A stretch of 64,000 bases of DNA from Neopestalotiopsis rosae (Eukaryota > Ascomycota > Sordariomycetes > Amphisphaeriales > Sporocadaceae): contig JALGAS010000006.1 in assembly GCA_023078685.1 (NCBI GenBank), forward strand, positions 248,001 to 312,000, read 5' to 3'. Of this stretch, positions 16,631 through 17,722 are shown piece after piece (within the stretch, counting starts at the first letter, position 1; every line of letters starts with the position of its first letter). A model generated the notes under the pieces. That model made no database searches and was not told the origin of the DNA. It saw only the letters and a program-made list of their open reading frames with translations. Made by a program: the position numbers and the translations under genes.

Positions 16631-17722
16631 TTATACATCATCCATCTGGCCGAGCGGCTCTTCTTCCTCGTCTCCAAAACTGGCCACCGATGACATGTCG
16701 TCGTCGTCTTCGCTCTCGGCGCCGGCCTCATCAACGGCATCCTTGCTGGCGTATTTAGTCACATATTCTACAAGTCTTGTCAGCCATGCTTATTTCAGCT
16801 TTTCTTGCATCGGAGTGCCAGGACCGCCTACCCTTGACCTTTGCGTCGTAGCTCTTGGGTTCCCTCATAAGCAATGCCGCCGCCTCGCCGTTCAAAGGAT
16901 CCGCAGGGTTGGGATAACGCAGAAGCTGGGGCAAAAAGACCTCGAAGATATTGATCATATCGAACATGGGAGACCAGGTCTGGTTGATCACATCCAGGCA
17001 GACAGAGCCGGACCTGTAAAAGAAGACCATCTCTTTTTAGTGACTGTTCCTTCTCTTATATTGCTGTTATGTGTTTCATTTCGGGTACCAAAACACTCAC
17101 AGCTCATCGATGTTGGGGTGGTAGATACGGTTGACGAAGCCAATACTGGGCGACTTATACGGGTACTGGTCGGGCAACTCGACGTGGACTTTCCACACGC
17201 CGTCTTCGAAGGGTGCTGTAGTCACATGTGTCAGAGAAAGACTTTAGTATAGTTGATGTAGCTTGGGGAATACGCACTCTCCGTCGGTCCCTTAAACCGA
17301 ACGTAGAACTCTTGCCTACATCATTATAAGCTGTCTGTCTGTCGGACATGGTAAAGGGTGGGCGTGTTTTACACTGCATCAATGGTCAGTCTATTCGTGT
17401 TCTGGTGTCGCATAGGTACGGAGTATCCAAGTTACTGTTATCATTGACCAGAGTGACCTCGTAGTCGCTCATAAGCCTGTTATCCAACTATTATTAGCAT
17501 TCCGAGGGTTCGCAAGGTACTCGTCGTTCTCAAGGGTTTGCGCCGTACATCCTGTAAATCGGGTCAGCGCAAGTTATACCACGTCGTGGCGAAGGGCCAT
17601 GTTTACTTCATGACCTGCAGAAAAGACGCATGATTAGTATGCCATTCACGAATGATTCCGAATCTCCTTTACTCTCGCCAGGAACTTACATCAGTCTCGA
17701 TACGTCTGCGTGGGCTACTCAT
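16631..17722 (-). CDS. ubc8: Ubiquitin-conjugating enzyme E2 Ubc8/UBE2H, nine-exon gene with micro-exons
   Basis: E2 of the Ubc8/UBE2H (GID/CTLH partner) type, 185 aa. Minus-strand exons: 17722-17690, 17614-17607, 17551-17549 (3 nt), 17476-17436, 17373 (1 nt), 17315-17278, 17215-17101, 17013-16832, 16767-16631; total 558 nt, an exact multiple of three. Visible landmarks are MSSPRRRIETD, the HPN motif (YHPNID), the active-site Cys in SGSVCLDVINQTW, PNPADPLNGEAAALL, and an acidic C-terminal tail with a DDDD run and SFGDEEEE, as in yeast Ubc8. All eight introns have GT..AG ends. Without the 1-nt exon T at 17373, exon 4 and exon 6 join out of frame; with it, the conserved NDNMQEF stretch is rebuilt. 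The 3-nt exon GAT gives the family-length VMKMLMSD instead of a one-residue deletion. Confidence 0.9.
17373..17373 (-). other. ubc8: Candidate 1-nt micro-exon of ubc8
   Basis: Single T between an acceptor (TTGATGCAG, ending 17374) and a donor (GTAAAA, starting 17372). The flanking introns are 62 and 57 nt. It supplies the middle base of the Met codon whose A is 17436 and whose G is 17315. The upstream intron has a CTGAC branch site. Confidence 0.7.
17549..17551 (-). other. ubc8: Candidate 3-nt micro-exon of ubc8
   Basis: GAT between acceptor TTTACAG (ending 17552, with branch GCTGAC upstream) and donor GTACGG (starting 17548). The flanking introns are 55 and 72 nt; the latter has a CTAAT branch and ends AACAG. 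Skipping it stays in frame but loses one residue that family members keep. Confidence 0.65.

What the first reader, a model, noticed from the sequence alone, without database searches (positions are those of the whole stretch)
17316..17435. Single-nucleotide exon in the ubc8 gene
Exon 4 ends in phase 1 (A at 17436) and exon 6 can only start at G 17315, because a TGA in the coding frame lies just upstream and no other AG fits. Joining them directly breaks the frame. A lone T at 17373, bounded by CAG and GTAAAA with introns of 62 and 57 nt, rebuilds an ATG codon from three exons. The result is the conserved NDNMQEF of Ubc8/UBE2H, and the 558-nt total closes. One-base exons are extremely rare; one is reported in a plant APC11 gene.
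Basis: partly seen in the sequence, partly recalled or inferred. Interest (0 to 1): 0.82.

Follow-up and report, generated by a model that had tools for sequence, protein, structure and literature searches.

The report
One-letter exon in fungal ubc8 gene
A fungal gene for a ubiquitin-conjugating enzyme appears to contain an exon one nucleotide long, needed to keep the protein in frame; related fungi seem to share it, and most of their database gene models examined do not read cleanly at that spot.

Summary
On the minus strand, nine exons (33, 8, 3, 41, 1, 38, 115, 182, 137 nt) join to a 558-nt frame for a 185-aa Ubc8/UBE2H-type E2. Exon 5 is a lone T at 17373 between CAG and GTAAAA, with introns of 62 and 57 nt; exon 3 is only 3 nt. 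No single deletion, whatever its splice sites, gives these codons. Of 432 GT/GC-AG isoforms, 51 stay open; the 1-nt exon scores best by 13.4 bits and alone reads NDNMQEF. Relatives weigh heavily: 44 of 45 intron-free ORFs from unnamed sources read NDNM(Q/S)EF (the 45th starts inside the intron), but only 14 of 163 public gene models do; 118 of the other 149 are intact on both sides. Some broken models expose the exon's acceptor or a compatible AG-T-GT. The exon is probably shared widely in Pezizomycotina. The kind is known (plant APC11, VPS55; Fusarium CYP621A). No RNA of this organism and no genomic DNA of a relative could be read.

The parts
17690..17722 (-). ubc8 exon 1 (33 nt, MSSPRRRIETD)
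   Evidence: donor GTAAGT
17607..17614 (-). ubc8 exon 2 (8 nt, GTCATGAA)
   Evidence: CTGCAG acceptor, GTAAAC donor
17549..17551 (-). ubc8 exon 3 (3 nt, GAT), a second ultra-short exon: last base of Lys14 and first two of Met15
   Evidence: 44 of 45 ORFs from unnamed sources have the full-length motif; 47 of 163 gene models are one residue short here
17436..17476 (-). ubc8 exon 4 (41 nt), ends in phase 1 with A 17436
17374..17435 (-). intron 4 (62 nt), GTAACT...ACTGAC...CAG
   Evidence: branch-site-like ACTGAC near the 3' end
17373..17373 (-). ubc8 exon 5: the single-nucleotide exon, T, middle base of the ATG for Met29
   Evidence: ORFs of relatives read Met
17316..17372 (-). intron 5 (57 nt), GTAAAA...CTTAT...TAG
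   Evidence: branch-site-like CTTAT is a weak match
17278..17315 (-). ubc8 exon 6 (38 nt), starts with G 17315
17101..17215 (-). ubc8 exon 7 (115 nt)
   Evidence: genome search match
16832..17013 (-). ubc8 exon 8 (182 nt), with the SGSVCLDVINQTW segment
   Evidence: genome search match
16631..16767 (-). ubc8 exon 9 (137 nt) with TAA stop, acidic tail
   Evidence: genome search match

Best explanation
The gene is the fungal ubc8 (UBE2H-type E2), and its Met29 codon is assembled from three exons: A (exon 4), T (a constitutive 1-nt exon 5) and G (exon 6). The two flanking introns are ordinary short GT-AG introns, each recognised across the intron (intron definition), so the exon needs no sequence of its own. 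Because the acceptor and donor are one base apart, the two introns are most likely removed one after the other (inferred). The arrangement, with the 3-nt exon 3, is probably shared widely in Pezizomycotina and usually missed by gene predictors (inferred from proteins).
For:: the 9-exon CDS closes at 558 nt; best of 51 open isoforms (432 tried), 395.2 bits against 381.8 for the next; the only one of the 51 with NDNMQEF; no single deletion with any splice sites gives the codons; 7 of 5000 shuffles match the full signal set; 44 of 45 intron-free ORFs from unnamed sources read NDNM(Q/S)EF, the 45th starting inside the intron; 149 of 163 gene models do not (72 of 83 in the first search alone); in 118 of those 149 both flanks are intact and only the junction is wrong; 11 models read NDNM(Y/F), which is what exon 4 plus T plus an unspliced GTAY or GTTY donor gives; 9 of 9 true in-frame read-through models allow YAG-T-GT with a branch-site motif on each side, in 5 lineages, against 7 to 158 of 2000 residue shuffles per model; no second strong ubc8 match in the genome (only the best candidates were scored), so no sign that this is a spare copy.
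Against: No RNA of this organism was available. No genomic DNA of a relative could be read, so conservation is inferred from proteins. Two canonical single-intron models also keep the frame. Intron 5 has a weak branch-site match and a T before its donor. Fourteen of 163 gene models read NDNM(Q/S)EF, and whether they carry the 1-nt exon or have lost the introns is unknown. Four broken models (Monilinia, Dothistroma, Baudoinia, Ascochyta) have the right length with R for M (NDNRQEF), and 6 keep M before QEF with extra residues before it; some of these could be true variants with another structure. 31 of the 149 broken models also differ beside the junction. Parastagonospora's compatible site would have a poor donor.
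Confidence: 0.92

Rival explanations
1. A single 104-nt intron (17419-17316, GTACCT..TAG) is used and the protein gains five residues (NDN-SNLDTP-QEF).
For: Canonical sites, in frame, 381.8 bits; many public gene models show insertions at this junction.
Against: 13.4 bits below the 1-nt model; none of the 44 junction-covering ORFs from unnamed sources has an insertion here; the PDB chain 8pmq_E (E2-24 kDa, recalled as yeast Ubc8) is also gap-free here, DSMQEF.
Confidence: 0.03
2. A single 125-nt intron (17435-17311, GTAACT..AAG) is used and MQE is replaced by K (NDN-KFYV).
For: In frame, 380.3 bits; 12 of the 149 broken gene models have this form.
Against: It loses conserved residues; none of the 44 junction-covering ORFs shows it.
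Confidence: 0.02
3. Assembly error: a base is missing in exon 4 or exon 6, and there is one 120-nt intron.
For: One base would restore the frame; a 120-nt intron is not impossible.
Against: Gene models of many genera from separate assemblies go wrong at the same codon (118 with both flanks intact), and nine read-through translations hold a compatible AG-T-GT at intron-like spacing. The T cassette has its full signal set in 7 of 5000 shuffles.
Confidence: 0.02
4. The 120-nt unit is a stwintron (intron nested in an intron), wholly removed.
For: Stwintrons are known in filamentous fungi and are also removed by consecutive splicing reactions (PMC5639578, passages seen).
Against: Complete removal leaves A-G and a frameshift with internal stops (skip5).
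Confidence: 0.01

Closest known systems
Single-nucleotide exon of plant APC11 (PMC4674806; part 1 of 3 of the text read)
   Same: One base between AG and GT, required for frame, constitutive; there the base could be substituted and still be spliced in, so flanking sites define it.
   Different: Plant; the region first assigned as one intron is 422 nt with the exon 333 nt in. Here both introns are about 60 nt, and a 3-nt exon lies two exons upstream.
Single-nucleotide exon of Fusarium CYP621A (PMC12940212; parts 1 and 2 of 3 read)
   Same: Ascomycete nuclear gene, one base (G) in AGGGT, restores a conserved motif, gene models nearly all wrong; confirmed there by RNA reads.
   Different: A P450 of unknown function, reported from Fusarium species. 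Here an E2 enzyme gene, base T, with signs of the same exon in several classes.
1-nt microexon of plant VPS55 (PMC8831610; passages seen)
   Same: Conserved 1-nt exon, missing from reference annotations.
   Different: Plant; some species also make a form without it.
One-nucleotide exon between group II introns in fungal mitochondrial rnl (PMC12308204; passages seen)
   Same: Fungal, a single base separates two introns.
   Different: Mitochondrial rRNA gene, group II introns, no spliceosome and no reading frame.
Zero-nucleotide recursive splice sites (PMC13149111; passages seen)
   Same: Acceptor and donor adjoin, so the pieces are removed stepwise.
   Different: AG|GU leaves no base and is described for very long introns; here one base stays and shifts the phase.
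Stwintrons (PMC5639578; passages seen)
   Same: Two short fungal introns in tight arrangement, consecutive splicing.
   Different: The unit is removed whole; here one base must remain.

Membership tests
Single-nucleotide exon | One base bounded by AG and GT with viable introns on both sides | tested here: met
   62 and 57 nt; CAG-T-GTAAAA
Single-nucleotide exon | Base is required for the reading frame and rebuilds a conserved residue | tested here: met
   Met in 44 of 45 ORFs from unnamed sources
Single-nucleotide exon | Base present in mature mRNA of the same organism | not testable with these tools
   no RNA data held; only intron-free ORFs of relatives
Single-nucleotide exon | Same AG-N-GT in orthologous genomic loci | tested here: inconclusive
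   no fungal DNA found in the two collections scanned; indirect support from translated gene models
Ubc8 / UBE2H E2 enzymes | UBC domain and closest match to Ubc8/UBE2H | tested here: met
   PF00179 134.8 bits; best PDB matches 8pmq_E (E2-24 kDa, recalled as yeast Ubc8) and 8pjn_2 (E2 H); many of the nearest named proteins are called UBC8, E2 8 or E2 H
Stwintron | Entire unit excised, no exonic base left | tested here: not met
   frame lost when the T is skipped
Zero-nucleotide recursive site | AG immediately followed by GT | tested here: not met
   one T lies between them

The most novel reading that the evidence does not exclude
The 1-nt and 3-nt exons of ubc8 date back to the ancestor of Pezizomycotina and have been kept because the pair of tightly coupled introns works as a splicing gate: failure at the T yields frameshifted, decaying mRNA and so tunes the level of this E2.
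Probability: 0.15. Interest if true: 0.78.

Novelty: new member of a known kind. Interest (0 to 1): 0.62.

Why it matters
As far as my searches show, it would be the second fungal nuclear gene with a single-nucleotide exon, and the first in a conserved core enzyme with signs of the exon in several classes of fungi. It gives a natural system in genetically tractable moulds for asking how a spliceosome handles an acceptor and donor one base apart. Of the 163 fungal gene models examined, 149 do not read the intact motif (118 of them with both flanks intact), which makes it a clear test case for annotation software; the sample is the top of three similarity searches, not a random one.

Tried and rejected
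Fungal DNA of relatives: scans of viral contigs and genome contigs with P0002 gave no fungal locus (none; three distant loci, one archaeal and two bacterial, L011-L013, not used). A second ubc8 copy in the genome: not found (apart from this gene, the matches listed are 27 to 46% identical). Single-intron, assembly-error and stwintron readings: see rivals. A signature of models that use the exon's donor ([STPALIV]VQEF, 11 models) was judged weak, since 3 of 14 VQEF models lack it and those residues are common; it is not used as proof. In one search one of ten pattern-matched inserts (P0134) was a false catch of the pattern upstream of the junction and showed no placement; it is left out of the 9 of 9. 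P0055, P0089 and P0121 allow two placements, not one. An earlier control on five models that I had picked is superseded. Of the 45 ORFs from unnamed sources, 32 went into the profile; 13 were dropped for extended or truncated N-termini. The split of the 211 proteins into 45, 163 gene models and 3 non-fungal was made by hand from the source column; P0043 and P0183, which have both kinds of source, were put with the gene models. The second search used an intron-retaining model as query and so favours broken models; the first search alone gives 11 of 83 intact. Each search listed only its best 120 of over 5,000 hits.

Full report
Setting. The window is part of a 53.8-Mb genome in 17 contigs, at C14:248001-312000. 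The gene is on the minus strand, 17722-16631.

Gene model. Joining nine exons with GT-AG introns of 75, 55, 72, 62, 57, 62, 87 and 64 nt gives a 558-nt frame and a 185-aa protein. It carries a UBC domain (PF00179, 134.8 bits). Its best matches among solved chains are 8pmq_E (E2-24 kDa, recalled as yeast Ubc8) and 8pjn_2 (E2 H). The first 124 nt of coding sequence are cut into exons of 33, 8, 3, 41, 1 and 38 nt. Exon 3 (GAT, 17551-17549) is thus also extreme; it gives the last base of Lys14 and the first two of Met15.

Is the T forced by the frame? Exon 4 ends in phase 1, exon 6 starts with the third base of a codon, and a TGA lies in frame just upstream of exon 6. Skipping T gives a frameshift. 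No single deletion in the stretch from exon 4 to exon 6, whatever its splice sites, makes the string for NDNMQEF. But of 432 isoforms with zero, one or two GT/GC-AG introns of at least 40 nt, 51 are open, so the frame alone does not settle it. Only one of the 51 contains NDNMQEF, the one with the 1-nt exon. Scored with a profile of 32 intron-free ORFs of relatives, it has 395.2 bits; the 104-nt intron (five residues gained) has 381.8 and the 125-nt intron (two lost) 380.3. For exon 3, inclusion scores 395.2 and skipping 386.3, the best two of 8 open isoforms of 162.

Is the cassette a chance match? In 5000 dinucleotide shuffles of the 120-nt stretch, AG-T-GT with both parts at least 45 nt appears in 118, with a CTNAY branch-site motif in both parts in 15, and with YAG and GTR as well in 7. 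Elsewhere in the window, 456 GT..AG stretches of exactly 120 nt give 10, 0 and 0, and 17,641 overlapping ones of 100-140 nt give 439, 2 and 1. Intron 4 has ACTGAC near its end; intron 5 only CTTAT, a weak match.

What relatives show. Three protein searches, each listing its best 120 of more than 5,000 hits, gave 211 distinct proteins. I set 3 aside as non-fungal. The 45 ORFs from unnamed sources lie on contigs of at most 3.3 kb, except for P0008 (up to 7.3 kb) and P0040 (no contig data). Of them, 44 read the motif without gap (pattern V[NRH][DN][NS]M[QS]EF); the 45th, P0138, starts inside the intron. They are uninterrupted through a region that eight introns cut in this window, so most are probably from transcripts; that is an inference. 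Of 163 gene models, 14 read the motif and 149 do not; in the first search alone, 11 of 83 do. Of the 149, 118 have both flanks intact and only the junction wrong, 25 lack or change the end of exon 4, and 6 differ downstream. In the 118 the junction is 2 residues short in 12, of native length in 4 (all RQE in place of MQE) and longer in 102. The broken models include Sordariomycetes, Leotiomycetes, Dothideomycetes, Eurotiomycetes and, with NDNSEQEF in Tuber indicum, Pezizomycetes (classes checked for examples). Saitoella complicata (Taphrinomycotina) reads the intact motif.

The ways in which models break are informative. Eleven read NDNM(Y/F), which is what exon 4 (A) plus T plus an unspliced donor GTAY or GTTY would give; they come from Fusarium, Beauveria, Cordyceps, an unnamed xylarialean, Aspergillus, Hortaea, Salinomyces and Aureobasidium (names). 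Nine models read straight through both introns in frame. All nine allow a YAG-T-GT placement with both introns at least 45 nt and a branch-site motif in each: two Fusarium groups of three models (introns of 47 and 52 nt in one; 51 and 54, or 49 and 56, in the other), Parastagonospora (47 and 55), Hypoxylon (53 and 58) and Clonostachys (58 and 74). Shuffling the inserted residues gives such a placement in 7 to 158 of 2000 trials per model. This is compatibility of back-translation, not a reading of DNA; the Parastagonospora placement would have a poor donor. Against a uniform picture stand the four NDNRQEF models and six that keep M before QEF with extra residues before it; these may be prediction artefacts or true variants.

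Similar evidence exists for the 3-nt exon: 44 of 45 ORFs from unnamed sources have the full-length motif, while 47 of 163 gene models are exactly one residue short and 52 are intact.

Mechanism. Shown: the sequence, the phases and that no other canonical join tried gives the motif. Supported by ORFs of relatives: the mature mRNA carries ATG there. Inferred: intron definition and sequential removal of the two introns, since an acceptor and a donor one base apart could hardly be occupied together (general knowledge of splicing, recalled). The APC11 experiments, in which the lone base could be replaced and was still spliced in (PMC4674806, part 1 of 3 read), fit the view that the flanking sites define the exon.

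Novelty. Single-nucleotide exons are in print for plant APC11 and VPS55, a placozoan mitochondrial cox1 (search listing only), fungal mitochondrial rnl in an Ophiostoma study, with a similar case cited for Ceratocystis (passages), and Fusarium CYP621A, whose authors call it the first for a fungal gene. My searches for single-nucleotide, one-nucleotide, 1-nt and single-base exons, microexons in fungi, ubc8 with microexon terms, ubc8 with intron and Neurospora, micro-exon with ascomycete, and smallest exon with fungal listed no paper on such an exon in ubc8. They cover openly licensed papers only, and the longer result lists were seen in part. The verdict is a new member of a known kind, notable for its host gene and apparent age.

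Noticed in passing
17549-17551: Exon 3 of the same gene is only 3 nt (GAT); 47 of 163 public gene models are exactly one residue short there.
   Followed up: yes
11352-16321 (+): Neighbouring ORFs look like a tandem family (first and third 37% identical) with motifs such as FHGFMSLPREIRD; none of the four ORFs has a Pfam match. The middle unit is split over two overlapping frames (13249-14094, 13755-14432), so it has an intron or is broken.
   Followed up: partly
9487-10557 (+): A Saf4/Yju2 family protein (PF04502), recalled as a splicing-factor family, lies about 6 kb from this oddly spliced gene; probably coincidence.
   Followed up: no
P0138 (unnamed source, contig of 1,393 bases): A Fusarium-like ORF that begins inside intron 5 of ubc8, so probably from genomic DNA and not from a transcript.
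   Followed up: partly
P0036, P0047, P0115, P0205: Four gene models (Monilinia, Dothistroma, Baudoinia, Ascochyta) read NDNRQEF, the native length with R for M; unexplained.
   Followed up: no
3715-5154 (+): Putative amidoligase (PF12224).
   Followed up: no
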